Below are positions 2,685-20,746 of a DNA stretch of 25,825 nucleotides, one piece after another. The stretch comes from Chrysochromulina tobinii (Eukaryota; Haptophyta; Prymnesiales; Chrysochromulinaceae), in assembly GCA_001275005.1 (NCBI GenBank), contig JWZX01001608.1, positions 1 to 25,825 of the forward strand. Reading direction: 5' to 3'. The position numbers were made by a program, and so were the translations under genes. The notes under the pieces were generated by a model. The model was not told where the DNA came from, ran no database searches, and saw only the letters and a program-made list of their open reading frames with translations. Every line of letters starts with the position of its first letter. Within the stretch, counting starts at the first letter, position 1.

Positions 2685-5595
2685 CTACGGCCGTATCGCT
2701 TTGGCGCGCGCCGCATCGCCGGCGGCGTCGAAGATGTCCGCCATCGCCTTCGCCGCCCATAAAGTCCAACGGCCAGCGCGCCAAACGTCCTGCCCTTCAA
2801 ACGGTGGAAGCACATACGGGATGACGCCCGCCGTGCGCTTGAACCGCTCGTCCGCCGTACAGCACCACGAGGAGAGCAGCTCTTGCAGCTCCTCGTGGTA
2901 GGTCGTGAGCTCGCGCCGCCCCTCAGCGGTTTCGTCAAAGCCGCCAAACGCGCGCAGCACGTCGTCGACGCGGAGCAGCTTGGTGGGCAGCGCGCCGAGC
3001 CGGGCGCGGAGAGCGGAGATGCTCAGCCCGGCGGGGATCGCAATCTCCGCGGGGATCGCAATCTCCGCGGGGATCGCAATCTCCGAGTCGGGAGCTCCGT
3101 TTGCGATCGTCGCGGCGGCGTCGGCGGCGTCGGCGACGCGTACTCGCGTCGTCGAGTGCAGCAGCAGGTCTCTCGGAGTGCGCGGGTTGCCTAAAAAGGA
3201 GCGCTCGCGATGGAGAAAGGGCGACGTGTTCAAGTTGACAGGGTCGAGGTAGTGGTCCAGAGAGCAATTGTAGCTGAGGAGGGAAGTAGTCGTTGACAAT
3301 CAGTGGTCATCAATGCGCACTCAGGGGTGTCATCAAGGCGCAATCAGTGGTCATCAAGGCGCAGCCAAGGGGTCGTGGTCGAGAGAGCAAGCGTACGGCA
3401 GGTGGAGCGTCGGATGGTCTGGCGCGCGGCAATCCTCCTTGATGTGGTAGATGAAGAAGCCCATCTCGCACGTACACGTCACCGTCGGCAGCACGAGCGC
3501 TCGACCCAGCGCGCGCGCCAAGAAGAAGGCATTGCGCAGTTGGCGCAGCTGCTCGAGCATGATCGTCAGGTGGTGCGTCGGGATGCCGCCATTGGACAAG
3601 GGCGGGCGGGCGAGCCACGTGGCCTCAATCCGCGGCTCATAGACGAGGAAGCCGGCCGCTGGCTCGATCGGCCCGAGCCCTCCGCCCGCGCGTGCCGCGC
3701 ACCCCTCGCTGTCGGCGTGAGGCGCGTCGGCGGTCGAGGGGCAGCGTGCTTGGTCGGGGGCTTGGTAGGGTGCTTGGTCGGGGGCTTGGTTGGAGGCGAC
3801 CGGATGACCAGGAGACCGGGAGACCGGTAGACCGTACCAGGTCGGCGGGTCACGCCAAAGCATCTCCTCGCGTAAGCGCATCAGCTTGTACCTAAGGAGG
3901 GATGCCATCAAGGCTCATTAGGGATGCCATCAAGGCTCATCAAGGCTCATTTACCTAAGAGGGATGCCATCAAGGCTCATCAAGGCTCATTTACCTAAGG
4001 AGGGATGCCATCAAGGCTCATCAAGGCTCATTTACCTAAGGAGGGATGCCATCAAGGCTCATTCAAGGCGCATTCACGAGGCACTCAAGGCGCAATCAAG
4101 CCCATCAGCGCACTCAATCCGTTGTTGACGCATCCAGGTAGCATGCACCGCATACGGAGCGACCGAGTCGTCCATATTAGGCAAGTCGACCGACTGAGAC
4201 GCGCTCGTGCCCGGTACGGCGCGCCAGAGCTGCAGCACCGAGTGCGTGAGCGTGTTGCAGAACTGCGCGGACGGGAGCACCCCGCCCACCTGTGGGGAAG
4301 AGAGGGCGCCGTGGTGAGCACATGCATGCGGAACTGCGCGGACGGGAGCACCCCGCCCACCGACGAGCCGTTGCAGAAGCCGCATGGGCGTCGGGTGCAA
4401 TCAGAGGTCATCAGCATGCAATACCCACCGACGAGCCGTTGCAGAAGCCGCACAGGCGTGAACCCGACTCGTCCTGGACTGGGAAGAGGGGCCGCTTCCA
4501 TCGGAATGCGCCGGGCTGCCCCATCTTGCCTGCCCCGAACCGCCATCGAAAGTTGATTGGGCCCTGGTCGACCCGACCCAGATTCCCTTCGAAGGCGAGA
4601 TGGGCGACCGCCTCTTCCATCGCGAGCAGCGTGCCCGGCCGTCGACCAGGGGGGAAGTGCATGATGCCAATGTTGAGGCTCGGGCCGCCGCAGTGTCCGA
4701 AAGCCTCGATGTCGAGGTCGTCGCTCGTGCCCGAGACGGCGTCAATCATTCCAACGGCCCGGCCTTCGTCGTCACCCTCATCGCCACCGACCCCACTGCG
4801 TCGGCCACGTCGGCCACGTCGCCGCTTCTTCTCTCGCAACCGTCGCCCGGGCGCCGTCGCGGGCGCCGCGGCGGGCGCTCGCGCTCGCGCTCGCAGCCGT
4901 CGCCCGTCGGTGCCACCTTGTGCGTCGGAGGAGACGGTAAAGTCGAGGAGCGGGTGGGCTGCCTCGAGTCGCACGAAGTACGGGCGTGGGTCGCGCAGCC
5001 ACGTCACGTCGGAGTCCGAGAGCAGCACGCGCGCGCCCGTGCGTAGCAGCGGGAGCACATGAAACCACCGTCCGCCCTGCGGCTGACGCGCCACCTCTGC
5101 CGAGTTGACAGTGTACACGCCCACCCCGAGCGCCCGTAGCTTGGTGGCGAACTGCACGTAGCGTGGCTCGGACGGCTGCTCGTTCATCATGCCCACGAGC
5201 AGCCCGCCCACGCCCAGCCGGCGCAAATGGTACACCCAGTTCTCGGTGAAGATGGCCTGCTTCTGGTTGCCAAAGGTGACGACGACGGTGTTGTCGACAG
5301 CGTGCCGGCGCACGAGCGTCTCGACGGTGCACTCGCCCTGCGCGTCGCAGCCGGGCGTCGGAGGCGGCGCCGCGTGCACGGGTGGCGGCGGCGAGGAGAG
5401 CGCGTCGAGGTCCGTCGGCGGGGGGCAGCCACCGGCCCAGATGCGGCAGCCGTCTTCGACCTGCTCGACGAGCGCGCGTTCCGACAGGATGGTGAAGCTG
5501 TGAATGTCGCGCCACGTGCGCGGCGGGATGAGCAGGTAGACGCTCACCACGAGGGCGGCGAAAAGGAGCAGGACGCGAGGTGGTGGGCCCGACAT
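2685..5595 (-). CDS. GT77-like (nucleotide-diphospho-sugar transferase, RRA/XGA-type) Golgi glycosyltransferase, four exons
   Basis: On the minus strand the exons are 5595-4429, 4289-4114, 3891-3397 and 3273-2685, giving 808 residues. The product is a type II membrane protein: a short cytosolic start, then a signal anchor (RVLLLFAALVVSVYLLIP, residues about 7-24). The catalytic region has the GT77 hallmark LLSDSDVTWLRDP, with the metal-binding D-S-D at residues 194-196 (5008-5016). Exon 3 carries HHLTIMLEQLRQLRNAF and ARALGRALVLP, then Cys-rich CTCEMGFF, as in plant arabinosyl/xylosyltransferases of this family; exon 4 continues with LPYNCSLDHYLDPVNL across the splice. Known family members transfer pentoses to wall glycoproteins or pectin in the Golgi; here scale or surface glycoconjugates are plausible targets (inference). 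An Arg-rich low-complexity insert sits after residue 220, a Gln-Ala-Pro-Asp tract in exon 3, and three EIAIPA copies in exon 4. All three introns bear duplicated sequence. ATG at 5595 is the first in frame and precedes the anchor directly. Confidence 0.85.
3031..3084 (-). repeat. 18-bp tandem repeat, three perfect copies, in coding exon 4 of the GT77 gene
   Basis: The unit gcggggatcgcaatctcc occurs three times without change and encodes three EIAIPA hexapeptides. Perfect identity suggests recent slippage within the exon. Confidence 0.9.
3274..3396 (-). other. GT77 intron 3, GT-AG, phase 2, begins with a decayed copy of exon 4
   Basis: The donor GTACGCTTGC lies at 3396 and the acceptor CTCCTCAG at 3274. 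Splicing gives HLPYNCSLDHY. The first 25 or so bases of the intron (GCTTGCTCTCTCGACCAC) mirror the first bases of exon 4 (AATTGCTCTCTGGACCAC). The remainder consists of repeats of the CTTGATGACCACTGATTG kind. Confidence 0.75.
3892..4063 (-). repeat. 40-41-bp tandem array inside GT77 intron 2 with abutting splice-site motifs
   Basis: Three near-perfect units plus degenerate ends. Read on the minus strand, each unit is TGAGCCTTGATGAGCCTTGA, then TGGCATCCCTCCTTAG, then GTAAA. Each unit boundary therefore juxtaposes a 3' splice site and a 5' splice site (AG|GTAAAT) at about 4036|4035, 3995|3994 and 3955|3954, before the real acceptor at 3892. Confidence 0.85.
3892..4113 (-). other. GT77 intron 2, GT-AG, phase 2, with tandem AG|GTAAAT units
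   Basis: The donor GTGCGCTG lies at 4113 and the acceptor CTCCTTAG at 3892. Joining gives RIEYKLMRLREE, which reads as continuous protein. The 3' half is a tandem array described separately. Confidence 0.75.
4260..4361 (-). repeat. 31-bp exon fragment duplicated on both sides of an introner-like element
   Basis: The copies at 4260-4290 and 4331-4361 are identical. The first is the start of GT77 exon 2 (GTGGGCGGGGTGCTCCC on the minus strand); the second lies within the intron. The 40 bases between them, 4291-4330, are the introner-like element. Confidence 0.95.
4290..4428 (-). other. GT77 intron 1, GT-AG, phase 0, holding a fused exon ghost
   Basis: The donor GTGGGTATTG lies at 4428 and the acceptor CCCCACAG at 4290; the protein reads NGSS|VGGVLPSAQF. 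The middle, 4331-4384, is a copy of the end of exon 1 joined directly to the start of exon 2, with no splice site between. Confidence 0.8.
4291..4330 (-). mobile_element. Introner-like element copy 1 (within GT77 intron 1)
   Basis: On the gene's sense strand the element reads GCATGCATGTGCTCACCACG, then GCGCCCTCTCTTCCCCACA, and supplies the 3' splice site. It shares this core with elements in the dihydropyrimidinase and NBR1-like introns. It is flanked by a perfect 31-bp duplication. Confidence 0.65.
4356..4452 (-). repeat. 29-bp duplication of the end of GT77 exon 1
   Basis: The copies at 4356-4384 (inside intron 1) and 4424-4452 (spanning the exon 1 end) are identical on the plus strand. 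Together with the 31-bp duplication they show that two duplication events built this intron. Confidence 0.95.
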
Positions 5596-6054
5596 CTCAC
5601 CCGGGAGTGGGCAGCAGTTTATGATATAAAGGTCAGTTGAACCGACCCGTTAACAACTCTTCCGCTCAGAACGACACACGCAAGCGCGCACCGATCGACC
5701 GGCATGGACCTAACCGACCCAACCGTACCCGGCAGCGGCCCTGAAGGGGCCCCGCCGACGCAGCATAGGCCAAAGAAAGAAAGGGTCGGTTGCATGATCA
5801 TCCGCGTTGGATGGCCGGGTGACGAATTCTGACTGTTACCATCAATGAGAAAGAAATAAGTTATCTGGCGCACAGGCCGTCCGCTCTTGGGAAAAACGAC
5901 AAAACTTCTGTTTTTGAACTCTGTCCAAATACCACCCAAGTTTCGGAACGACGCATAAGGGCATGAGGGTTTGGCACCTCTAAACCATCCCGCCCTGAAC
6001 GCCTTCGTGGTGTGTTCGAGTTGAGCGGTCTTAGGCAGTGTCCCATCTAAGAAG
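5596..6054. promoter_or_regulatory. Divergent intergenic region between the GT77 gene and the giant ROCO/ART gene
   Basis: These 459 bases separate two genes read outward, so both promoters should lie here. An AT-rich TATATCAT-like stretch (minus strand, 5621-5630) is only about 30 bases before the GT77 ATG, close for a TATA box. A 42-codon ORF on the plus strand (5704-5832) starts in a fair ATG context but resembles nothing; it could be an upstream ORF. No precise promoter can be called. Confidence 0.4.
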
Positions 6055-9000
6055 ATGGCGCCGAAGCAGCCGGCCAAGCCGAAGACGCCTGAGCCAGCGG
6101 AACTGCCGATTGACAAGGTCAAAGAGTCAAAGGGTGCTCCGCAACAGGATTCGAAGCGTGGCAGCAAGCTCGACTCGGATCGCAACAAAGGATCCCCGCC
6201 CAACAAAGGGGCGCCCTCCGCAAAGGGTGCGCCGCCAGCTGCGCCAGCAGCGCCGACTGGCGGTGCCCCAGCCGCGCCCGGCAAAGGGGCACCACCGGCG
6301 CCACCAACAAAGGGTGCGCTCACCACGGTTGTCGCGGCAGCCACGCTCGCCGCGCCTGCGAAAGGGGCGCCGCCGCCGGCCGCCCCAGCCGCGCCTGCAA
6401 AAGGGGCGCCCCCACCGGCTGCCCCAGCCGCGCCTGGCAAAGGAGGCAAGCTCGCCACAATCGTAGAGCAGGCGAGCGCGCCGCGAGGGTCCCAAAGCGG
6501 CGATCCCTGCGGCGAAGTTCGTCACCCTGTCGAGCGGCTTGCAGAAGAAGGTTGAGTACCTGACCGATGAGATCATGAATCGCAAGCCTCTTGCGCCCAA
6601 CCTGTTCGAAGCTCTCTCCCGAAAGTGCGGCCCTCCGATGCAGGAAGTAAGATTCGACCGCAACGAAGCGAAGCCGCCGCCCGGTCGGCAGGACGACCTG
6701 GCGCCCTCGCGTCATGAACACGTGCCGCCATGCCGCATCGTTCTCATGTTCAACTGCTTCGAGGCGAGCTTTGAGCTCGCGTATGGCGACATCTCGACGC
6801 TGCCCGAGGCAGAGATGACTGAGCTTCGCTCGCTCACGAGCGGCAAGATCATTGGGCGTGTGCGCCTCTCGCCTGACAAGGGGACGCCCCTCACCGAGCG
6901 TGTGATCTTCACCGATTCGTGGCACCTCGGCTCGGAGCATGGGCTGGAGCATGACGGCTTGCAGGCCGACGGCTACATTTTCCTGCGCTTGGATTGGCGC
7001 GACCATGACCAGCCGCGCGCGGCCCTCATCCGAGTGAACCCGTGGCTTGCGTACGGCTGCGGTGAAGGGGCGCGCGTAGGCATTCGCAAGCCAGGAGCCA
7101 CCGAGAGCACGGCGGCGACCGTGCAACGGTGGCTGCGCGACGACACTGTCGTCTTGAAGCGCGACGGCACCGACAACGAGGTAACCATCGACCCGACGCC
7201 CTTCACGATGGTGCTCGGCTCGAACCCTCGCTATAACCCGGGCACCCGGCTGCTCATTCTCTACGAGGGCAGTTGTGTCGACGCGACGGTCGAACCCTTT
7301 CCGGTCGAAAACATGTCGACGGGCGACTTGGACGTCAAAATTGGCTCGCGCCATTACCTCAAGGTGGATGGAAAGCTCATATCGGGCTGGATCACCTCAA
7401 AGACCGCCGACGGGTCCGTCAACCTCGATGAGGTGCCTCTGCCCGGAGGGGAGGTCGTGCCGGACGACAAGAAGGTGTGGGTACTCAACCGCAAGAAGGC
7501 GCTCGCAATGAGCTCCGGCTGCAACGCATCCGACTCGGAAAAGGTCGGCTCCCTCACGAACAAGATGCAGGTGCGCATCCTCGAGGCACGCGAGACGGAA
7601 GACAAGGGCACGCGCTGCTACGTGTGCACAATCCCGTCCCAGTCCAGCATCTACGCGACCATCGCTCTGAACGAGTTTAACCACAGCCCGCAGCGCTTCC
7701 CCTCTGTAGCAGAGTACGAGTCCGCGCGGTGCAACTACTGCGAGGACATCGTGGTGAAGGAGGCGATGGTCGAGGATGCGATCACGGGCAACCACCTGCG
7801 CATCAAGGACCAGACGCTGCATATTTCGACCGCGACGGACGCCCTGGACAACACGCGCGTCATCCCTCCCGAGTGGAAGGTCAGCAGCGTACTCGATCTC
7901 TGCACTCTGCTCTTGGTGCCCTCACCCCAGCGCGCGAACGGCACGCACGCGACGCAGCCGGTGCTCGTGCGCGCTGGGCCGGGCACCGGCAAGACCTGGA
8001 TGGCCAAGCAGGCGGTGTACACGCTCGCCGACCGGCTGCTGCGCGGCTCAGGCATGGGTGATGGCATCCGGCTCGTGCCGATCGTTGTCTTCGTGCAGCG
8101 CATCATCTACCTGCTGCGCGAGAACGAAAAGGTACCGGGGCAAGGAAAGAAGCAGACTCTGCTTGAGCGCTACATCGAGTCCGTGTACAGCGGCAAGAAG
8201 TTCGAATCGTGGTGCATGATGCTCATGCAGGCGTACGACATGCGCGCGCTCGTGGTGCTCCTCGACGGCGTCGACGAGGCCGCGGGCCTGCGCGACCAGA
8301 TCGAGGAGTTTGTGCACAAGGAGGTCGTGCCCTCGGGCAATCGTGTGCTCGTCACCTCGCGCCCGGAGGGTGTCAAGCTCGAAGCGTACAACAAGAACTT
8401 CATCGTGATGAACCTCAACCAGCTCACTAACGAGCAGCAGCGGCGCGTGATCAATATCCAGATGGAGGGTAACGTCTTCTTCGACCACCTGCTCTCGCTC
8501 GGCGAGGTCCGCAAGAACCTCGACGACGCGTACCGCAAGATCGGCGCCGTCGTGCGCAATGACCTCGAGACGCAGTGGGGACCCCACGCCTGGCAGTACC
8601 TTGTCGATGGAAAGCCCGTTTGGGATCCGGCTCGGCGCCAGAAGAACGCGTTCGGGTCGAACTTCTGTATGCCCGTGCGCAACAAGGCAAGCTGCGAGTA
8701 CCTGATTGATCTCGACAAGAAGTTGACGAACCCGAACACGGCCGCCGGCGTGAGCCTGTTGGGCCGCGTCGAGATGCTTTGTGCGACCAAAGCGTATGTG
8801 GAGAACGAGTTCGAGGCGGCGATTCTGGAGGGCTTCTGCAGCCTTGCGGACATCAACAGCCGTGAAAACCTCCCCAACAAGGTAGCCCTTCAGCTTGGGG
8901 TCCTCTACATGAAGCAACAAGAGAAGAAGCGGCTTGCGGGCTTGTCCTTGCAGACGGATACGACGAAGAGCAAGAATTCTAAGACCAAAGCGGCCGAGGC

Positions 9001-12000
9001 GGCGGCCAAGAAGGCGGAGGAGGAGAAGAGGGCGGCGGCCAAGAAGGCAGCGGAGGAGAGGGCGGCGGCGTTGGTAGCTGGCGCGGAGGCCGGAGAGGTG
9101 GCGACGGAGGGCGGGGACGAGGAGGTGACCCCCGAATCGCTCGACAACCCGAGTGGCATGTGGAAGTCGATCATGCAACGCACCGATGAGCTCTATATTG
9201 TGCATGAGAAGATGAATCCCACGTGGAAGGAGATCCTCAAGAAACTTGTGATCGAGGTAGCCCGTGATGACGCCGAGTGCAAGAAGCTCGAGAAGGATAT
9301 CCAATTTGGTGACGTCAAGGACCCCGTCAAGATCCATTCGAAGGCACTCGAACTCTATGCCGATCGGTTCCCTGATGACATCTTGCCGGAGACGTGTGTG
9401 AGCGACGTGACGCGCGCGCGCATCGTGCTGCAGACGGGCACCCAAATCAAGGACCTCGTCAACCGTCTCACGGACGGGATGGAGCTCAGCGTCGAGACTC
9501 GTGCCCCTGTGTATCCGAGCATGCGAGCAGCCCTGAAAGAAAAGGAAGAGGCCGATTTGGCGGCTGGCGTCCAGCCGGGCCCGACCGTCCTGCAGGTCAA
9601 CTGCATGTTCATGGACAACAAGTTCGACCACCTCGACCCTACGCACTTCCGGTTCGCGCTCTTGCAGATCGAGGTCGCTGAGAAATTGGGCGTCAATTTC
9701 GTCTCGATCTTCTGCGAGGTCGAGGTCCATTTCCACGAGATCCTCGCCCTCGGGCAGCAGTCCAACGGGGTGGCCATCGAGCACTACAACTTCTTCCGGA
9801 ACCGCCTCAAGGGGACGGTGCCCGTGGAGGAGCTCGATCGGCTGCTCGAGGAGAAGCTCATCTTCCTCGTGGACGCGACTGGCATCCCCGTGCTGCTCTC
9901 GCTGCTCGTGCTCATCTTCACCTCGGGGGGCGAGGACCTGACCAAGCTGCCCTCGAACCGTATCGAGCTCTATGAGATCGGCATCGATTCTGCCGTCTCG
10001 AAGCGCCTGCTTCCAGGCAACCGGACCTCGACCGATCTGCTGATCCACGATTGGCTGCGCCTCTTCAACCTCGACCGCTCGGCCTTGACCCAAACCGTCG
10101 ATGTCGTGGGCCCGGCTGGCGGCGACGCGAAAGGCGGAGGCGGCGACCAAAAGGAGCGCAAGGAGCGCGAACACCGGCCGACTCGCAAGGCCGCGCTCTC
10201 GATGGAGCTCGCCAACAACACGGACTTCAACGAGAAGAAGATGCAGGAGGAGTCGTCGAATGCGGCCAAGAAGAAGAACAATGAGCAGTCGGGCAATAAG
10301 GATAATAAGAAGCTGCTCAACCTGGACGCCAAGGAGGTGTACGAGGTCTTTCGCCACGGCTCGCACTATCTGCGCGAAGCGGCCAAGCCCGAGGTGCAGC
10401 GCACTGAGCTCAACCGCATCGAGCTCTCGATGCCCAAGAAGCTTGTCGACACGGTGATGATGCTCGTCAATGCGAACCTGAAGATGCTGCTGGGAAACCG
10501 CGCACAGATGCTTGGGGTGACGATGCTCCGGCACGTGGCCGTGTCCAACCAGCTCGCCGGCCGTCGCGAGTTCTCGGCGGTCCACGTCGCCACGGCGCTG
10601 CTCGTCGAGCAGGTGAACACGGAGGGGTTGACGCTGTGGATGCACCTGAACAAGGAGGATGCGGGGCTGCCGCTCACGAAGACACTCGAGGCGCAAACCG
10701 AGCTCGCGCCCGCGCAGTACCAGTTCAAGCACCTCTCCTTCCAGGAGGGTTTGTTTGCACAGGATCTCTTGCTCAAGGCCGAGGCGGGCTGGGAGACGTG
10801 GGAGACGGACCTGACCGCTGCAGAGTTCCTCAACAACCCGTTCATGAACAACACGTGCCGCATCGCCGCGGGCTACCTCGGCACGCGCCTCGCCAAGCGC
10901 CGTCCTAATTGGGACTTTTCGAAGAAGGAGTGCAAGCTGTCCGAGGTTGGACTGATCGCGCTCTGGCTCATCTGTGAGAACAATGAGAAGATCAAGCAGC
11001 TCGACCTGCGCAACAACGGCGTGGGCACCAAGATCGAGGACTCGAACGGCCTGTCGCGCATGCTCTCGACGAGCACGGCGCTAACCGTGCTCGATCTCGG
11101 CCACAACGTCCTCGGAGACCTCAAGGGATACATCCGCCCCTTTGGGCGTGGGCTGAGCTCGAATAAGACGCTGATCCAGCTCGACCTTCAGAACAATCGG
11201 CTGCTGCCCGACGGCATCAAGGTCGTCTGTACCGCGCTACGCACGTGCACCGCCTTGAAGATCCTCAACCTGAGCTACAACTCTCCCGGTCGCGAGATCA
11301 CGCTGTCCCAGCTTCTCCAATTCCACCCGACGCTCCAATCCGTGGGCGTGATTGAGAAGGAGCCCACGACGCGTGCCGAGAGGACCTGGTGGCTCGACAC
11401 GCGGGCCAAGGAGGCCATCGGGAAGGCGCTGCTCCTTTCCAAGTTTGCCTCGATCCACTACTTGCAATGCGACGTTTTCACGCTCACGGACAAGACGGAG
11501 GTTCTTTCGTGGACGTCGCAGGCCAACTGTGATGCGATCGTGCTCGCCGGCGTGCTCCGCTCAAACTCGGTGCTCAGGGCGCTCAACATTGGCTCCTCGG
11601 GCGGCGAGATCGGCGACTACGAGCGCGAGAGCATCGGCCTCTCCCTGATCAGTAACATGAACGGCAAGCTGGGCTACTCGGACATGTACGGGCTCAAGGA
11701 GAACATGAGCCCGACGCACCGGGTGGATCTGAAGGAGAAAGACCAGATTCGATCTCGGCGCTCGTTTACGCTGTTCGCGGGGCTGCTACGGGCGAATTCG
11801 ACCCTCACCTCCCTCACGCTCGCGTCCGTGGTGCCCGAGCAGATCGAGGTGCTCGCGGACGCGCTCTCGACCAATACGACGCTCGTCTCGCTCATCCTTG
11901 AGCAGCCGAGCAAGACGGGCGACACCGCGTTCGCGATGCTGCCCGTCCAGGAGCTCAACGGGATGAAGAAGATGGAATTCATCGACCTGTTTGAGAAGGG

Positions 12001-15000
12001 CTACGGCGGCTTCATCGCCAACGACACCCCCGGCGCCGCCGCCGCCGAAGCGGCCAGAGCGACCGCCGCGATGCTCGCCGGAGGGCCTACCATGCCGATG
12101 CACAGGCAGGCGTGCGCGTTCGTGGGCGCCATCCTGGGCGCCACGTTGGCACCCAACCGTACCATCCAGCGTCTCAAGATCAACCCCGGAGGCGGCTCGG
12201 AGGGCGGCGCGGTGCTTGATCACCTGCACAAGGCACGCAAGTCGTCGCTCATCGTGCTCGACCTGACGGACATCGGTCTCGGTGAGCGCGGCGGCCCTCG
12301 CTTCTTCGAGTCGATGCTCGCCGGCAAGTGCCCGATGCTCAAAGCTCTTCACTTGGGCTCCAACAAGCTCACTGACCTGTCTGTGGGCCAGTTGATCGTT
12401 GAGGTGCTCCGATCGGACGCGTGCAACATCACGACGCTCGACCTGCACGACAACCAGCTTGGCGCGCCGGTGATGGTGCAGTCGTTGAAGTACAACCGAT
12501 CGCTCACCTCGCTCAATATCACCGGAAACCCGATCGACGATGACGGGTTATGGTCCATAGGCGGTCTGTTGCTCGAGCAGGATTGCAGGTGCGCCCTCAA
12601 CTCCATCTCAGTCGCCCCCTTCGAGATCCCCCACGGCTCTGATAAAATCGCCATCCACGAACAGACCCTTGGCGCGGGTGCAACTCGTCTCATGTTCGGC
12701 GTGCTCAAGTACAACACGCTCATCAAGAAGCTTGATCTCAGGAACCGAGGCATCACGCCCTCCGCCGCCTCCATCCTCGCAGTCGCTGTGGCCGCCAACA
12801 CCGTGCTGCAGTCCATCGACCTTTCGGGCAACCCCATCGTCGACGTGTCGCAGTACACTGGCGACAAGCCGCAAAGTGACACCAAGGGCCTGCTGGCCCT
12901 GTCCGTGGCTGTGCAGAAGAGCTCGTCGGTCGAGGCGATCACGCTCGAGGGCGGCACACTGCCAGTGGACCAGCTCAAAGGCGTAAAGAAGGTGCGCATC
13001 CTCGATCTGTCGCGCAAGAACTTGTCGCTAATCTCGGCCTACTTCATGGGCACGCTGCTCTCGGGCAACACCTTCATGACCGAGCTCGTTCTCCACACCA
13101 ACGACCTCACGCCGAACGGAGTCAAGATCGTCGTGAAGCAGGTCACGACCGCGATGAAGACCATCGACGTCGCAAACGTGGTCAAGCGTGATGAGAAGGC
13201 GAACAAGGACAAGGGCACCAAGGGCAAGTGGGGCGGCGTCGTGTCGGCGGCCAAGGAGATGGATGTGCCACCTCACGAGCTTGAGCAGATGTGGAGCGCG
13301 ATCTCCGATTTGCCCTGGCTCGACAAGCTCACGCTCGACAAGGACTTGCTCACGGCCTTGCCGATGGTGGGCAAGATGATTGGCCTGAAGCACCTGAGCG
13401 CCGCGAGCAACAAGCTCAGCACGCTGCCCTCAGACATCAACCTGATCCGAGGCATGCGCACGCTGCAGCTGAACGGCAACCAATTATTCGAGCTGACGCA
13501 CGCGGTAGGCGACCTCGAGCAGCTGGAGCGGCTAGACGTGCGCATGAACAAGCTGCCGTACCTGCCCACGACCGTCTCAAAGCTGCGCAACCTCAAGCAG
13601 CTCGACGTATCGGAGAACATGCTGCAGACGCTTGACCCCTCAATCTGCGACCTGCACACCATCGAGAAGGCCGAGTTCAAGGACAACCCGCTCGTGCGCC
13701 CGCCGATGGCGATTGCTCGCCAGGGCCTCGGTGCGGTGCGCAAGTACTTCCAAGAGGTGGTCACCGCCGTCGACATCCGCTCCTACTCGGCCCGTTGCGT
13801 TATCCTCGGCCACGCAGACTCGGGCAAGACCACCCTCGTGCGTGCCCTGAAGCATAACATCGCCCAGCTGCCGTTGCCGGCTCCGAGCGTCTACGAGTCG
13901 ACGAACCACGTGTCCATCGATACGATCACACTCGGGGAGGGGGCAGAGCAGGTGGCGCTCTCGGTCTGGGATATCAATGGCGCTCTACAGGGCGCGTCGA
14001 CGACGATGCGTTACCTCTCCGAGAATTCGCTGTTCATCCTGACCGTCCCTGCGCTCGGTGTGAACCAGCTAAAGCGGGAAGCCACGGAGTACGTTGAGCG
14101 GTGGCTGAGCTACCTGCGCCACTGCGCGCCGAATGTGACGGTCATCCCCGTTCTGACCAAGTGCGACATCGTCAAGGGGCATGAGACGGGGCATGGCTCG
14201 TCGGTGCCACTGAACCAGCAGCTCGAGAACGCTGCGGCACCTCAGCTTGCCTGGTTCAACGAGCAGCTTGACAAGTTTTCGAAGCTGCATAGCTCAACTG
14301 CGCCGGGCGCGAAGACCATCAAGATTCTGCGTCCGATCCAATGTGTGCAGTCCATCTCGGGCGGCGATACGTCGATTGTGCCGCTCAAGGAGAAGCTCGA
14401 GGGGCTGATGAAGGGGCATTCGGAGGAGAAGGCGTTGCCGCACGTGGGCCAGATCGTGACGCGCAACGCGTTCCTCACAGCAGTCTTCATTCGAGCCCTG
14501 CGCGATGGGCGCGAGTTTATCGACTCAGCGCGTGCGGCCGACATTGGTTACATCCCCTCCACGATGTCTGCTGAGCAGAAGAACACGCCCAAGCCGTTTT
14601 TCAAGTTCGAGGACATGGCAATGATGTACGTCAACGAATTCGTGCCCGCGCTCAAGCTGACCGGAGCAGACGAGCGCGTGCTCAGAGACCAGCTGAAGCT
14701 GCTCCAAGCTCAGGGCGAGATTGCAATGGATCCGACAGGAAGGGTCGTCTTCCTTGACCGAGAGTACCTCATCCGCATATTCAAGCCGATGTGCGACTCC
14801 CGGATGGGGAACCGCCTCTGGCTGTCGCGCATGATTGCGGCGCAGGACGCGATACGGGCCCTCTATGGGCGGCCGCTGTGCACCGAGTTTGAGAAGATTG
14901 CGCTGGGCAACTCCGCCGATAACTTCGAGAAGACGGGAGAGATCCACGAGGAGCTCATCATCAACATGTGGGACGCGCTCGGGTTGCCGGTGCGCCGTGA

Positions 15001-17406
15001 GGACTATGGGCAGATGATCTCGATGCTGTGTGCCTCGGGCCTCATCTACCTCGCGGACAAGGACGCGGCCGGTGGGCGGCGGTGGATCGTCCCGATGCGA
15101 GTGCCCCTTCCGAAGGCGGACCTGCTCAAGGAGCAGTGGCTCAGCGCGACCGCCGAGGCCTACGAAAACGAGGGCAAGGCGAAGACGCTCGAGGTGCTCA
15201 CGATCGCGATCTCCCTCGGCCGGCTGCCGGTAACTGGTCTGTTCGAGTCCCTCATCTCCACCTGCGATGGCTTGGGCTCGTGGGTCGAGAGCTGGCGCAC
15301 CCCTTCGGGCACGGGCGCCACCCTCAAGGCAAAGGCGGTCTTGCCGGGCGTCTCGCATCTGATGATCGAGATGCGACCGAAGACCACGACCGAGACAAAG
15401 GATGGGCTAAAGGAGTGGGAACTTGCAATCGAGTGCCTCTGCCCAAAGGCGACGCGGCGCGACGCGTGGGCCTCGGTCATGTTGTTCAAGAGCAAGGCGC
15501 AGTCGGTCATCGACTCGATCGTGGGTATTGCCGAGACGTGTCGCTCCTCGTTTGTCTGCCCTGGGTGCAAGGGCCTCCAGGACCCCGAGCCGTTCTCGTG
15601 GGCGCTCGAAGACGTGCTCGGCCGAGCCAAGACGTGCGAAAAGTGCGACGAGCACGTGCAGCTGAACACCGTGTCGCTCAACAGCGGTATCTCGACGCCA
15701 AAACTCCTCGTGATGGAGAAGGCGCTCAACTCGGCGCCGCGCGAGATCAAGGTGGGTGACTGCCTTTGAATGCCTCTCTGATCGCCTCTCTGATCGCCTC
15801 TCCCTAATGGCCTCTCTGAGGTCCGCTGACGCCCACCGCGAGCGCTGTCCTGAGCAGTTCTGCCTCGAGAAGCTGCGCTTCGGCCGGCCCCTCGAGTCTG
15901 TCTTCCCATTGCATGTGCTCCTCGGCCTGAACTCACAAGAGGACATCGACAAGTCGCGCGCCAGTGGCATCGACGGCATCATCGCCGAGATTATTGCCAA
16001 GCCCGACCCCACGCGCTCGGACAATACGGAGACGCGCAACGCCCCGGGCTGGTCCACCCTCGAGTGGCTCAAGTACGCGGATGGCCTCTCTGAGTGTACT
16101 CTGAGTGCTCCTCTGAGTGCTCCTCTGAATGCTCCTCTGAGTGCTTCTCCCCTCTCCCCTCTCTCCCCGTTGTCGGATGACAGGTACCTTGCGGGCGACG
16201 CGGCAGAGGAAGCGGTCAGGGCCACCGGCGCCGGCGCCGGCGGCAAGTCGCATGACGAAGGCGGCGCGGCCAAGGCGGCGGCGGAGTCACAAGAGAGGCT
16301 CAAGAAGCAGGCCAAGGAGCATGGGATCGATGCAGGGCGTGACAATGTCGACCTTGGCGTCTTCGTCAAGATGCCGATCTGCGTGGCGGCGGGCCTCCAC
16401 CGTGGCCACGTGCTCGCGTTGCGCCTGTACACGAGTCGGATGGCGCACGCGATCAACATGCCGCTGCACGATGTCTGCTCGCCCGAGCGACCGCACCCGT
16501 ACCCCACGCTCTGCGTGCTGCTTAACGACGCGGTCTGGAAGCTGCGCGCAGCGCAGATTGAGCATCGGAATATGTTGCTCAAGAAGGCGGCCGTCCTGAT
16601 GGAGGCGCACAAGAAGGCCAAGGCTGAGGGCGACGACGACACGGCAACTCTCAAGCTCGCGGATGCCAAGGAAATCGAGAACACCGCCAAGCAGCTCGAA
16701 ATGTAACGTCCTTGCCTGAGATGCCCTCTAGTTTGCCTCCATTGCCCCTCAGGAGATGGCCCCTGATGATGGCCACTGATCCACTCCGATGGCCTCCCTC
16801 ATCAGGTCCTCGTTTTGGACGGGCGTGAACAACATGGGCCACTACGAGTTCAAGCTGCGAGGTGCGACCGAGGTCGGCTTCTTCTCCGTCTCCAAGAAGC
16901 GCGACGATGCGCAAGCGGCGTCGCAGCACTCGCAGCTGCTCAAGCAGATCAAGCACCTCGATGACGATTTCGACGAGGAGCGGATCCACCTTGCGCTCGC
17001 CCCCGACTGGAAGCGAGGCATCGCGGGCGTCTCGAAAGAGACTACCGGTCCGGTGGTGGTCCAAAAGGGAGGCAGCCAAGTCAGGGAGGTACGTCTGCTT
17101 GCCAATGATGGCCTCTGATCGCCTGTGATGACGCCTAATCGCCTCGCTCATCAGGTACCCGTCCTCATGTTCAATGTGGTCACGCCGAGCGACACGGTCA
17201 ACCCAACGGACATCTCCTTTCTCTCGTGCTTCCCACACGAGGGGGAGTGTGTCTTTGCCCCGGGCACCTTCCTCGAGCAGACGAAGATTGTTGAGACCAC
17301 CTCGATGAACTTCGACGGCGAGTACCTGCAGTACCGTACCCTCGAGGTGGCGCCGACGCTCGGGCGCAACCTGAGCGCCAAGGGGCGCGCGCAGGCGGAC
17401 CTGTAA
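6055..17406 (+). CDS. Giant NACHT-LRR-Roc-COR-ADP-ribosyltransferase protein (ROCO family), five exons, one frame break near 6487
   Basis: Coding segments 6055-15751, 15843-16072, 16184-16702, 16806-17088 and 17155-17406 total about 3,659 residues if one extra G at 6487-6489 is skipped. In order: a disordered Lys-Gly-Ala-Pro-Pro repeat (to about 145); an uncharacterised beta-rich region; a NACHT/STAND NTPase with Walker A GPGTGKTW (641-648), Walker B LVVLLDGVDEA (about 732) and VTSRPEG (766); an Ala/Lys/Glu linker (about 975-1012); an NLR-like motif FKHLSFQEGLFAQ (about 1560); ribonuclease-inhibitor-like LRRs (1640-2370); shorter LRRs (2420-2550); Roc with GHADSGKT (2585), DINGA (2639) and TKCD (2701); COR (about 2795-3020); CPGC and CEKC (3168, 3194); and an ART-like domain with LYTSRMAHAIN, FWTG and ISFLSCFPHEGECVF (E3605, E3607). 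ROCO proteins are GTPase switches and ART enzymes transfer ADP-ribose from NAD. A sensor-switch-effector role is inferred. ATG 6055 has a good context (aagaagATGG). Confidence 0.85.
6349..6450 (+). repeat. 39-bp tandem repeat encoding AAPAKGAPPPAAP-type units
   Basis: Copies lie at 6349-6387, 6388-6426 and a partial from 6427. They encode the Pro/Ala/Lys-rich N-terminal tail of the giant protein. The same composition extends back to about 6190 in looser form. Confidence 0.8.
15752..15842 (+). other. ROCO/ART gene intron 1, GT-AG, phase 0
   Basis: The donor GTGGGTGAC follows ATCAAG. The body is repeats of TGCCTCTCTGATCGCCTC type. Only the AG at 15841-15842 keeps phase 0; the AG at 15819-15820, which looks more like the other acceptors here, would shift the frame. 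The acceptor is therefore the least certain of this gene. Confidence 0.5.
16073..16183 (+). other. ROCO/ART gene intron 2, GT-AG, phase 2, 111 bases with no stop
   Basis: The donor GTACGCGG and acceptor GATGACAG join to give LEWLKYLAGDAAEE. The intron body is CTCTGAGTGCTC repeats, the same kind as in other introns. Its length is divisible by three and contains no stop, so retention would add 37 Ser/Pro/Leu-rich residues. Confidence 0.7.
16703..16805 (+). other. ROCO/ART gene intron 3, GT-AG, phase 2
   Basis: The donor GTAACGTC splits an ATG codon after AT; the acceptor is CCCTCATCAG. The product reads TAKQLEM|SSFWTGVNN. The body has GATGGCC/GATGATGGCC repeats. Confidence 0.8.
17089..17154 (+). 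other. ROCO/ART gene intron 4, GT-AG, phase 0, 66 bases
   Basis: The donor is GTACGTCTG and the acceptor CTCATCAG; the following exon also begins with GTAC. The product reads GSQVRE|VPVLMFNVV. This separates the middle of the ART-like domain from its EGE motif. Confidence 0.85.
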
Positions 17407-17438
17407 TGAGGGAGGCCATCCGAGCGCCAACGGGCTCG

Positions 17439-17497
17439 TATGTGCTTGTCCTATGTGCTTGTCCTATGTGCTTGTCCTGGGTGCTTGTCCTTTGTGC
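17439..17497 (+). repeat. 13-bp tandem repeat, about 4.5 copies
   Basis: The unit is tatgtgcttgtcc; copies start at 17439, 17452, 17465 and 17478 (tgggtgcttgtcc), plus a partial. Confidence 0.9.
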
Positions 17498-17604
17498 GAA
17501 TGCGTCTGCAGCAGCTCGGAGCTCGAAGCGGAGCACGAAGCGGAGCTGCAGCAGTCTCTCGTGCCCTTTGTTGTGCGTGATGCGTGATGGCTGATGCTGT
17601 CTCC

Positions 17605-17757
17605 CCGTGATGATGTTCCCATGATACGGACAGTGAGGCCATGAGGGAGGATGCTCAGAGGAGTTTATCACCGTGATTATGTTCCCATAGTACGGACAGT
17701 GAGGCCATGAGGGAGGATGCTCAGAGGAGTTCAACACCGTGATGATGTTCCCATGAT
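17605..17757 (+). repeat. 66-bp tandem repeat, about 2.3 copies, upstream of the dihydropyrimidinase gene
   Basis: Copies at 17605-17670 and 17671-17736 differ at a few positions; a third, partial copy runs 17737-17757. Each contains gatgttcccatga-like and gaggccatgagggaggatgc segments. It lies 200-360 bases before the ATG, so a regulatory role is possible but unproven. Confidence 0.85.
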
Positions 17758-17961
17758 TGAGGAGGAGGGGCTCTTCCATGCACAGTGAGTGGTGAGAAAT
17801 GTGTGCGCTGTCGCTGTGCGTAGAGCGCAGCCTGGTGGCGACTCGCGTATGGACGATATGGTGGACGATTGGAAGGTAGTCCCTAGCGGTAGCGCCGTGT
17901 TTGGGTGCAGAGGGGGCAGTTCACACGAAGCTTTGGACATTCACAGCCTTGACGGAACGAA

Positions 17962-20550
17962 ATGACGTCGTTCGAAGTCACAATCCGCGGCGGCACGGTC
18001 GTGACAGAGAAGGATGTCGTGCGCGCCGACATTGGCATCAGCGGTGGACGCATCACGGCGATCGCGCCTTCGCTGCCCCCCGGAACGGTCGAGGATCACA
18101 ACGCCACCGGCCTGCACGTCTTTCCGGGCGGAGTGGACTCGCACTGTCACATCGAGCAGAAGACGTCCACGGGTCTGACGCCGTGTGACGACTTTTTCAC
18201 AGCGTCCATCGCAGCGCTATGTGGCGGGACGACCACCCTCATCCCGTTTGCGTGCCAGCACCGCGGCCAGAACATTGCCCAGGTGGTGGCCGCATACCGT
18301 CAAGTCGCGGCCAAGTGCGCGTGCGACTATGCCATCCACGTGATCGTGAGCGACCCCGCGGTGGAGCACGCGCTGAGCGATCTGGAGGTGCTCTTCCGGG
18401 AGGGATACACCTCCATCAAGACATACATGACTTACGACGCGCTCCGGCTGAAGGACGATGAGATGCTCGAGCTCCTCGCCCTTTGTCGTGCACATGGCGC
18501 CATGGTCATGGTGCACACACGCTTGGATGGCCACTGAGCAGCACTGATTGCCACTGATTGCCACTGATTGCCTCTGAGAGCATGCGCATTGCCTCCCTCC
18601 TCAGGTGCACGCGGAAAGCCACGAGCTCATCACATGGATCACCAAACGACTCGTCGATGCGAAGCGCACTCTGCCGCGCTACCATAGCGTCGCACGTCCG
18701 GCGTTAGCGGAGCGCGAGGCGACTCACCGAGCCGTGACGTTCGCTGAGCTCATCGGCACTCCACTGCTACTCGTCCACGTGTCCTCGGTAACCCGCTCGC
18801 TGATTGCGTCTGGATGGCCACTTGATTGCCTCTTGATTGCCTCTCGAGGGCCACTTGATTGCCTCTTGATGGCGCCTTGATGGCCGCTGGAATGCCCCAC
18901 TGAGCGCCACTTGATGGTCTCCCTCATCAGGCCGCAGCGGCGGCCGAGATCGCGGATGCGCGCGAGCGAGGCTTGCCCATATTCGGCGAGACCTGCCCGC
19001 AGTACCTCGCGCTCACCTCCGACTGCCTCGCCCGACACGACGCGGCCAAGTTCCTTTGCTCACCACCTTTACGGAGCGTCTTCGACCAGAGTGCCCTGTG
19101 GGACGGTCTGCGCAGCGGCTCGCTCCAGGTGGTTGAAGTGTTTGGATCAGAGCGCCCTGCGGAGACAGGTGATTGCCACTCATCGCTTCGGATTGCCGCG
19201 CTCATCAGGTGGTCTCGTCAGACCACTCAGCGTATAATTTCGAGGCGGAGCATTCGGGGCAGGCGGCGAAGACGATGGCGGACGCGGATGGCGCGACGCG
19301 TCCGTTTCACAAGGCGATTGCCTCTGATTGCCTCTGATTGCCTCTGAGTGCCTCTGAGTATCCCCTTCTGGCCTCTGATTGCCGCCGATTGCCTCTGATT
19401 GCCTCCGATGGCCACTGATTACCCCTTCTGGCCTCTGATGGCCTCGAAATGCCTCGAGATTGCGTCGAGATTGCGTCGAGATTGTGTCGAGATTGCGTCG
19501 GGATCGCGCAGGTGCCGATGGGCTTGCCCGGGCTCGAGTGTCGCATGCCGCTGCATGCAAGTGCTCACCACGACGCCCTCTCTCCTCTCCCCACAGGTGC
19601 CGATGGGCTTGCCCGGGCTCGAGTGTCGCATGCCGCTGCTCCTCTCGCACTCTCGCCGTCCCCAGACGCCTCTCAAGCTGACCCAGGTCGTCGCGGTTGC
19701 TTGCACGAACCCGGCCAAGCTGTATGGCATCTACCCTCGCAAGGTGAGTGCCGCTGAGTGCCGCTGAGTGCCTCTGAGTGCCTCTGGGTGCCTCTGAGTG
19801 CCTCTGATGGCCTCGGATGAGCTCTGATTTGCCCCCCTCATCAGGGGACACTGGCTGTGGGCTCAGACGCGGACATCGTTCTGTGGGATCTTTCGTCCAC
19901 GTGGACGCTCACCAAGACGGCGCTCCATGATTCGCTCGACTATACCCCATATGAAGGCTTCCAAATTAGGGGCGCGCCGGTATTGACGATGCTCCGGGGA
20001 CGAGTTGTGTTTCGTCGCTCGAGTGTGCGAGGATCGCTGAACATTGGCGCCCTCGACACCATCAACGCCTCGGAAGGGCAGGTGAGCACATCTGAGTGCA
20101 TCTGAGTGCATCTGAGTGCATCTGAGTGCATCTGAGTGCATATGACGACAATCTCCTCGCATCTGAGTGCATCTGACGACGATCTCCTCGCATCTGACGA
20201 CCATCTCCTCGCTCGTCCCTAATTAGGGCGAATGGCTCCCCTGCGGACGGCCCGATCTTCTCGGTTGGCAGCCGCCGGCAGGGGGGCTCTGGCCCGACCG
20301 CGCGTGCCCGGTGCTACAGCGCGCGGACGATCTGGATCGCGAGATTGCGGCGGCGGCGGACGATCTGGTTCGCGAGATTGCGGCGGCGGCGGGGGCGAGT
20401 ACCGAAGGCACGGGCGGCGGCGGCGGCGGCGGCGGTGGTGCTGGCCTGTCGCTCGGCGCGCCTGCCGCCGCCAGAAGCAGTAGCAGCGGAGGCAGCGGAG
20501 GCAGCGGAAGCGGAGGCAGCAGAAGGAAGCGCTTGCACGAGGAGGGCTGA
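17962..20550 (+). CDS. Dihydropyrimidinase / hydantoinase-type amidohydrolase, seven exons
   Basis: Exons 17962-18510, 18605-18787, 18931-19128, 19209-19313, 19597-19743, 19845-20081 and 20227-20550 give about 580 residues. The family hydrolyses 5,6-dihydrouracil and dihydrothymine to N-carbamoyl-beta-amino acids, the second step of reductive pyrimidine breakdown, or related hydantoins. All expected metal ligands are present: HCH in GGVDSHCHIEQ, the lysine expected to be carboxylated in TSIKTYMTY, His in VHAES, His in LLLVHVSS, and Asp in SSDHSAYN. Other family blocks are GGTTTLIPF, GETCPQYL, PMGLPGLECRMPLL and GTLAVGSDADIVLWD. All six introns fall in phase 0. The last exon is doubtful: its reading (LQRADDLDREIAAAADDLVREIAAAA, given here in parts, then Gly and Ser-Gly runs) does not match a family C-terminus. 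Start: first ATG (context gaaATGA), immediately before the beta-strand FEVTIRGGTVV. Confidence 0.9.
18511..18604 (+). other. Dihydropyrimidinase intron 1, GT-AG, phase 0
   Basis: Donor GTGCACACAC; acceptor CCTCCTCAG; the next exon begins GTGCACGCGG. Six bases are shared between intron start and exon start. The body has several ACTGATTGCC units. Confidence 0.9.
18788..18930 (+). other. Dihydropyrimidinase intron 2, GT-AG, phase 0
   Basis: Donor GTAACCCG; acceptor CCCTCATCAG. Splicing joins VHVSS to AAAAAEIADARERG, as expected in the family. The body repeats CTTGATTGCC and CTTGATGGC. Confidence 0.9.
19129..19208 (+). other. Dihydropyrimidinase intron 3, GT-AG, phase 0
   Basis: Donor GTGGTTGAAG; acceptor CTCATCAG; the next exon begins GTGGTCTCG. 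Five bases are shared. Splicing gives SLQ|VVSSDHSAYN. Confidence 0.9.
19314..19508 (+). repeat. Decamer-type repeat array (gcctctgatt and variants)
   Basis: Many adjacent units of GATTGCCTCT, with variants GAGTGCCTCT, GATGGCCACT and, at the 3' end, cgagattgcgt. A segment ending in accccttctggcctctgat occurs twice (about 19360 and 19420). The array forms most of the intron. Confidence 0.85.
19509..19639 (+). repeat. 46-bp exon-start duplication flanking an introner-like element
   Basis: The copies at 19509-19554 and 19594-19639 are identical. The second begins with the final CAG of the intron and continues into exon 5; the first is inside the intron. This parallels the 31-bp duplication at 4260-4361 in an unrelated gene on the other strand. 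Confidence 0.95.
19555..19593 (+). mobile_element. Introner-like element copy 2 (within dihydropyrimidinase intron 4)
   Basis: Together with flanking bases it reads GCATGCAAGTGCTCACCACG, then ACGCCCTCTCTCCTCTCCCC and ACAG. Aligned to the element at 4291-4330 it differs by two substitutions and one four-base gap over the shared core. It contains GCAAGT, a strong GC-type donor sequence, and provides the acceptor. Confidence 0.65.
19744..19844 (+). other. Dihydropyrimidinase intron 5, GT-AG, phase 0
   Basis: Donor GTGAGTGCC; acceptor CCCTCATCAG. The body is a run of TGAGTGCCTC units. Splicing gives IYPRK|GTLAVGSDAD. Confidence 0.9.
20082..20226 (+). other. Dihydropyrimidinase intron 6, GT-AG, with two nested tandem repeats
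   Basis: Donor GTGAGCACAT; acceptor CCCTAATTAG. It holds five or more catctgagtg decamers (about 20087-20140), then three units of catctgacgac followed by (g/a/c)atctcctcg. The acceptor, and so the frame of the last exon, is less certain than for the other introns. Confidence 0.65.
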
Positions 20551-20746
20551 AGACTGAGCGCCGAGCCCGAGAGTGACCTTTGCCACGTCCCTCGCATACA
20601 CGTCGCTGAGGTCCAGTTATCGTCACGTCATAAAATGTGTATAGCTTTGCGCGCCATAACCAACATTGCTGTGGCGCCGACGCGACGCGAGGGTTCGCCG
20701 ACCAGAACTTTCGCGTCGTTCTGAGCACCGCATTCTCGTCGTCACT

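What the first reader, a model, noticed from the sequence alone, without database searches (positions are those of the whole stretch)
6055..17406. NACHT-LRR-Roc-COR-ART: sensor, switch and effector enzyme in one giant protein
Seen: Walker A/B and VTSRPEG of a NACHT-type NTPase, the NLR-like FKHLSFQE motif, two LRR classes, a second P-loop with DxxG and TKCD (Roc), COR and a C-terminal ART-like domain. Known: STAND/NLR proteins sense, ROCO proteins switch through GTP, ARTs modify targets using NAD. Inference: two nucleotide switches gate an ADP-ribosylating output, giving an innate-immune or stress sensor in a single-celled alga. I do not recall this full combination as described.
Basis: partly seen in the sequence, partly recalled or inferred. 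Interest (0 to 1): 0.9.

Follow-up and report, generated by a model that had tools for sequence, protein, structure and literature searches.

The report
Algal NACHT-LRR-ROCO-ART giant protein
A single-celled alga carries a real, repeated gene family that joins an immune-receptor-like ATP switch, leucine-rich repeats, a Parkinson-kinase-like GTP switch and a protein-modifying enzyme fold in one giant protein, but in this copy the enzyme part has lost a key catalytic residue.

Summary
One gene runs from ATG 6055 to stop 17406 (five exons, about 3,660 aa). NACHT, LRR and Roc pass Pfam cut-offs on its own sequence; COR and ART do not but are supported by predicted folds and relatives: Roc-COR resembles LRRK1/2 and bacterial Roco; the ART region, modelled on a relative, resembles ART2.2. 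The combination recurs: 13 of 18 Roc-bearing giant relatives carry the ART in the same predicted protein, and paralogue C523 holds NACHT region, LRR, Roc and ART in one open frame. The organism is most likely Chrysochromulina tobinii.

Two parts of the interpretation weaken. This copy and its C304 twin have Thr at the motif-I Arg of R-S-E transferases, so ADP-ribosylation by this protein is doubtful; other members keep all three motifs. And the LRRs are constrained on average, so "immune sensor" is unproven. Best reading: a NACHT-LRR chassis with a ROCO-gated ART output, this copy a pseudo-enzyme. Eight library searches showed no description of the combination.

The parts
6055..17406 (+). whole gene, ATG to TAA, 5 exons, about 3,660 aa
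6055..7960 (+). N-terminal part: Pro/Ala-rich head, then a region shared with relatives, fold not examined; one-base frame break within about 6467-6555, absent from P0001
7961..8452 (+). NACHT NTPase (Walker A, Walker B, TSRPEG)
   Evidence: PF05729, 31.0 bits, cut-off 26.7; motifs
9857..11026 (+). conserved stretch after the NACHT (69-81% identity in six relatives), holding FKHLSFQE at 10724-10747
11204..13246 (+). first LRR block (LRR_6 type); edges by eye
   Evidence: PF13516
13289..13741 (+). second LRR block (LRR_4/LRR_8 type); edges by eye
   Evidence: PF12799, PF13855
13796..14167 (+). Roc GTPase (GHADSGKTT, WDING, TKCD)
   Evidence: PF08477, 39.0 bits, cut-off 27; own-genome hit
14399..15685 (+). 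COR, ending in CPGC...CEKC (15557-15646), a putative zinc ribbon; edges by eye
   Evidence: no Pfam match on its own letters; Roc-COR model against LRRK1/2, 3dpu, 3dpt, 6hlu
15752..15857 (+). intron 1, 106 bp, GT-AG, with a 12-bp tandem array
16094..16183 (+). intron 2 (probable), 90 bp, GT-AG, in frame if read through
16703..16805 (+). intron 3, 103 bp, GT-AG
17089..17154 (+). intron 4, 66 bp, GT-AG
15864..17400 (+). ART-like domain with helical lead-in; core by profile 16317-17400
   Evidence: profile A2 and relatives with PF01129/PF03496; fold of relative P0018
16813..16827 (+). ART motif I reads FWTGV: motif-I Arg absent
16879..16893 (+). ART motif II FFSVS (Ser kept)
17236..17247 (+). ART motif III HEGE (ExE kept)

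Best explanation
The gene encodes one member of a family of giant NACHT-LRR-ROCO-ART proteins of this haptophyte and its relatives. Inferred mechanism: the LRRs bind a partner or ligand; release lets the NACHT module exchange nucleotide and oligomerise as in other STAND ATPases; this brings the Roc-COR modules together, whose GTP-dependent dimerisation acts as a second gate; the C-terminal ART fold is then presented as the output. Shown here: the domains, their order, the single polypeptide, the recurrence. Inferred: every step of gating. In this copy and its C304 twin the ART lacks the motif-I Arg, so it is most likely a pseudo-enzyme subunit (NAD-binding, scaffolding, or regulating Arg-bearing sister proteins in mixed oligomers) rather than an active transferase.
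For: NACHT, LRR and Roc above cut-offs. COR and ART folds (49, 56, 63). Roc and ART in the same predicted protein in 13 of 18 Roc-bearing giant relatives, and in the same open frame on own-genome contigs C523, C1000, C1912 and C1830. P0056 (2,917 aa) reaches the Pfam cut-offs for Roc and for ADPrib_exo_Tox and shows Arg, Ser and ExE. Motif-I Arg: present in 23 of 36 ART rows printed, absent in 8 (window and C304 among them), 5 not readable by the pattern, near-copies included. On a tree of 24 rows the five Arg-less rows need at least three changes; window plus C304/P0002 is one supported pair next to P0004 (keeps Arg) and P0003 (no ART seen). Exon 6 with the ExE has dN/dS 0.10.
Against: No transcript or protein data. 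The ART fold was modelled on P0018, not on the window's spliced protein, and its motif-bearing half has lower confidence (block pLDDT 43-83). The Roc-COR model has modest confidence (pTM 0.44). The window's own letters give no Pfam match to COR or ART. Of nine relatives scanned with Pfam five match NACHT, all below cut-off, and four do not match it (one of these starts after that region); their NACHT rests on homology to the window. dN/dS rests on one gene pair with few changes per exon and possible gene conversion; exons 4 and 5 (0.54, 0.70) and exons 3-6 together (0.39) are less constrained than the rest (0.21), which could also mean a decaying domain.
Confidence: 0.6

Rival explanations
1. 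An active ADP-ribosylating immune sensor: the Thr at motif I is tolerated, and LRR recognition of a pathogen triggers modification of targets.
For: Ser of motif II and ExE of motif III are kept; NACHT-LRR resembles NLRs; ROCOs are candidate immune receptors in brown algae (PMC11378527, passages).
Against: Motif-I Arg replaced in both closely related copies; LRR blocks constrained on average, dN/dS 0.10-0.22, and on the whole more conserved than the output end.
Confidence: 0.12
2. A housekeeping signalling scaffold (cell state, cytoskeleton or membrane traffic, like LRRK-type ROCOs), where the LRRs bind a fixed endogenous partner and the ART is a regulatory or binding module.
For: Strong conservation of NACHT core (71-87% identity) and LRR (42-70%) in the relatives compared; low average dN/dS in the LRRs.
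Against: A multi-copy family with variable C-terminal modules is more typical of receptor repertoires; no partner known.
Confidence: 0.2
3. The ART end is a decaying remnant, and the working protein is NACHT-LRR-Roc-COR only.
For: Motif-I Arg lost; dN/dS 0.54 and 0.70 in exons 4 and 5.
Against: Frame and splice sites intact, exon 6 dN/dS 0.10, the domain kept in C304.
Confidence: 0.15

Closest known systems
NLR / NACHT-STAND ATPases (NLRC3-like)
   Same: NACHT with Walker A and B, a conserved stretch with FKHLSFQE, then LRR_6-type repeats; an EF-hand relative is named 'protein nlrc3' in C. tobinii (P0049)
   Different: a ROCO GTPase and an ART fold follow the LRRs; LRRs constrained on average
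ROCO proteins (LRRK1/2, Chlorobium Roco; brown-algal LRR-ROCOs, PMC11378527)
   Same: LRR-Roc-COR core
   Different: NACHT before the LRRs, and an ART after COR where LRRKs have a kinase (recalled); the brown-algal paper has 0 occurrences of NACHT or ADP-ribosyl in its main text
R-S-E mono-ADP-ribosyltransferases (ART2.2; Pfam PF01129 / PF03496)
   Different: motif-I Arg replaced by Thr in this copy; long insertions; part of a giant STAND protein
NACHT-LRR relatives with other C-termini (EF-hand: P0045, P0049, P0050, P0051, P0053; WD40: P0071 of Prymnesium parvum)
   Same: homologous NACHT region (29% of the 1,141-residue query covered in each of these six)
   Different: EF-hand or WD40 modules instead of Roc-COR-ART (Pfam accessions as listed; their names partly recalled)

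Membership tests
NLR / NACHT-STAND | NACHT NTPase with Walker A and B | tested here: met
   PF05729 31.0 bits, cut-off 26.7; motifs
NLR / NACHT-STAND | LRRs C-terminal to the NACHT | tested here: met
NLR / NACHT-STAND | ligand-triggered ATP-dependent oligomerisation | not testable with these tools
   needs protein
NLR immune receptor | LRR diversification (a common, not strict, mark of pathogen receptors) | tested here: inconclusive
   average dN/dS 0.10-0.22 in LRR blocks, 0.06-0.31 in 100-codon windows there, one gene pair; no site test run
ROCO | Roc GTPase with P-loop, DxxG and TKxD | tested here: met
   PF08477 39.0 bits, cut-off 27; motifs
ROCO | COR directly after Roc | tested here: met
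ROCO | GTP-dependent dimer switching | not testable with these tools
   needs protein
R-S-E ART | ART fold | tested here: met
   on relative P0018 and paralogue C1859 (PF01129 26.6 bits, cut-off 22.3), carried to the window by homology; the window's own letters give no Pfam match
R-S-E ART | motif-I Arg | tested here: not met
   FWTGV in window and C304
R-S-E ART | motif-II Ser and motif-III ExE | tested here: met
   FFSVS and HEGE
R-S-E ART | NAD-dependent transferase activity | not testable with these tools
   needs assay

The most novel reading that the evidence does not exclude
Haptophytes evolved a repertoire of giant receptors in which two unrelated nucleotide switches (ATP at NACHT, GTP at Roc-COR) gate an NAD-using ART output in one chain, and in which dead-enzyme members such as this one act as regulatory or decoy subunits in mixed assemblies with catalytically intact sisters.
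Probability: 0.27. Interest if true: 0.87.

Novelty: new variant of a known kind. Interest (0 to 1): 0.64.

Why it matters
If the architecture works as its parts suggest, one polypeptide holds a STAND ATPase, a ROCO GTPase and an ART fold, so the coupling of two nucleotide switches could be tested in a single molecule. It would extend NLR-like and ROCO repertoires in a unicellular haptophyte: the brown-algal ROCO paper (passages) reports ROCOs with simple architectures in several SAR species (diatoms, oomycetes) and, among green and red algae, only in multicellular ones. The natural mix of Arg-bearing and Arg-less ART copies is a ready comparison of enzyme and pseudo-enzyme outputs.

Tried and rejected
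Separate genes or transcripts: rejected on genomic grounds, since C523, C1000, C1912 and C1830 keep Roc and ART in one open frame. An intron within 6467-6555: set aside in favour of a one-base assembly difference, because P0001 is continuous there. Pfam on the window's own COR and ART letters gave nothing, nor did a PDB sequence search with the ART part; the PDB sequence search with Roc-COR matched only in the Roc part in the 60 of 131 rows shown. PF27087, listed for many relatives, is not explained: I did not find what it stands for. Literature: eight library searches. One search, naming NACHT, Roco, ADP-ribosyltransferase and leucine-rich repeat together, counted 3 papers and listed 2. I read passages of PMC9334734, PMC8195603, PMC7159879, PMC11378527 and PMC4580454 (the C. 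tobin genome paper: 0 occurrences of NACHT, leucine, ADP-ribosyl); of other papers I saw listings only. None of what I saw describes this fusion; the library lacks most subscription papers. Left out of the 18 Roc-bearing relatives: P0016 and P0017 (Balamuthia, Clavelina), which list Roc but are kinase proteins matching by LRR or GTPase only.

Full report
What is there. The gene occupies 6055-17406 on the + strand. The first exon, 6055-15751, holds the N-terminal part, NACHT, LRR, Roc and COR; four short exons (15858-16093, 16184-16702, 16806-17088, 17155-17406) hold the ART region. All four introns begin GT and end AG. Within about 6467-6555 the window changes frame by one base; P0001, from another source, is continuous there. 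From that point to the first intron P0001 and the window differ at five residues only, and each of the five equals the C304/P0002 sequence, which points to gene conversion or to mixed assembly of two near copies.

Domains on the window's own letters. NACHT, LRR_4, LRR_6, LRR_8 and Roc exceed their Pfam cut-offs. COR and ART give no Pfam match even at E 10, and the ART region no PDB sequence match.

One polypeptide. In the own genome the ART search hits 12 contigs, seven of which also have a Roc hit: C684, C304, C523, C1000, C1859, C1912, C2221. C1830 has a Roc hit and an ART by profile. Roc and ART share one open frame on C523, C1000, C1912 and C1830 (3355, 2648, 2182 and 1231 aa); on C304, C1859 and C2221 they lie in successive frames. 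The C523 frame also includes the NACHT region, 74.8% identical to the window over 234 positions, although Pfam scores its NACHT and ART below cut-off. In the database, of 18 Roc-bearing giant relatives (P0001-P0009, P0031-P0033, P0035-P0037, P0043, P0054, P0056; Roc as precomputed) 13 also hold the ART in the same predicted protein; P0001 and P0002 end just past the window's first splice site, and P0003, P0009 and P0054 show no ART. I did not check whether these database proteins are single frames or spliced models. In seven of the 13 (P0005, P0006, P0007, P0031, P0032, P0033, P0036) the NACHT-region query is covered 98-100%; P0008 starts after that region. One giant, P0040, has EF-hands and an ART without Roc.

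Catalytic residues. The names of the motifs (I Arg, II Ser, III ExE) and the reading of xWRG as motif I are recalled from general knowledge of R-S-E transferases; the residues are read. The window reads FWTGV / FFSVS / HEGE, C304 FWTGV / FFSVA / QEGE. P0004, P0008, P0036 and C1859 keep all three. Counting all 36 printed rows, near-copies included, Arg is present in 23, absent in 8 and unreadable by the pattern in 5, of which P0029, P0030 and P0056 show it by eye. Other positions vary too: motif III is lost in P0005 and P0007 and altered in C1000 and P0006. A tree of 24 rows needs at least three changes for five Arg-less rows; the label of P0002 was taken from C304, and P0003, P0009 and P0054, without a visible ART, were counted as not Arg-less. 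So the family probably includes active transferases, while this copy is doubtful.

Evolution. Identity to the window in up to seven relatives or paralogues: N-terminal part 37-63%, NACHT core 71-87%, the stretch between 33-46%, the FKHLSFQE stretch 69-81% (P0008, 32 positions only, 47%), LRR blocks 42-70%, Roc 31-43%, COR 34-49%, end of COR 26-36%, ART 26-50%. In C523 one ART section (48%) exceeds two LRR blocks (42-44%), so the contrast is a tendency. dN/dS between window and C304 is 0.21 overall up to COR, 0.10-0.22 in the LRR blocks (0.06-0.31 in 100-codon windows there), 0.24-0.26 in Roc, COR and after it; in exons 3-6 it is 0.26, 0.54, 0.70 and 0.10. This does not look like an arms race on the LRRs, but it rests on one pair and on averages.

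Organism. P0009 is named Chrysochromulina tobinii by NCBI, its contig has the length of C2149 (30,731 bp), and 2,727 of 3,076 of its 30-residue words occur in frames of the C2149 piece fetched. The C. tobin genome paper gives 59 Mb and 63.4% GC; G000 has 53 Mb. Most other Roc-ART relatives come without an organism name, so how many species share the family is unknown.

Wider setting. The NACHT region finds 63 proteins: 17 list Roc, 9 list EF-hand families (P0040, P0045, P0049, P0050, P0051, P0053, P0065, P0076, P0082), P0071 of Prymnesium parvum lists WD40, P0058 and P0083 list ankyrin. The own genome has at least 34 NACHT matches, 27 over the cut-off (four of them only with their neighbours in the frame). 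The window gene is thus one output class of a larger NACHT-LRR repertoire.

Function. I commit to a two-switch gated output protein of which this copy is most likely a pseudo-enzyme member. Gating, ligand and targets are inference. Nothing here shows an immune role, and nothing excludes one.

Noticed in passing
window 14918-15112, against P0001 and C304: The only five internal residue differences between the window and P0001 cluster in COR and all equal the C304/P0002 sequence: gene conversion or mixed assembly of two near copies.
   Followed up: partly
window 15752-20212 (introns and spacers): Introns and spacers hold many short degenerate tandem arrays with units such as GATTGCCTCT; one (16088-16149) starts six bases before intron 2.
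   Followed up: no
window 8048-11080, minus strand: A 1,010-codon frame is open antisense to the gene; probably a by-product of high-GC coding sequence.
   Followed up: no
window 20660-23310: A second LRR gene (LRR_6, LRR_1) with internal duplications of 192 and 201 bp, about 90% alike.
   Followed up: no
window 24257-25823, minus strand: NBR1-like gene in two frames (N_BRCA1_IG, UBA_NBR1_C, weak ZZ).
   Followed up: no
window 17953-18534; 4411-5649 minus; 1316-2035: Neighbours look ordinary: amidohydrolase, nucleotide-diphospho-sugar transferase, methyltransferase.
   Followed up: no
P0040: A NACHT-LRR giant with EF-hands and an ART but no Roc listed: the ART may be exchanged between chassis.
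   Followed up: no
P0001-P0009 and many of P0031-P0077: Pfam PF27087 is listed for most relatives but appeared in no scan here; its meaning is unknown to me.
   Followed up: no
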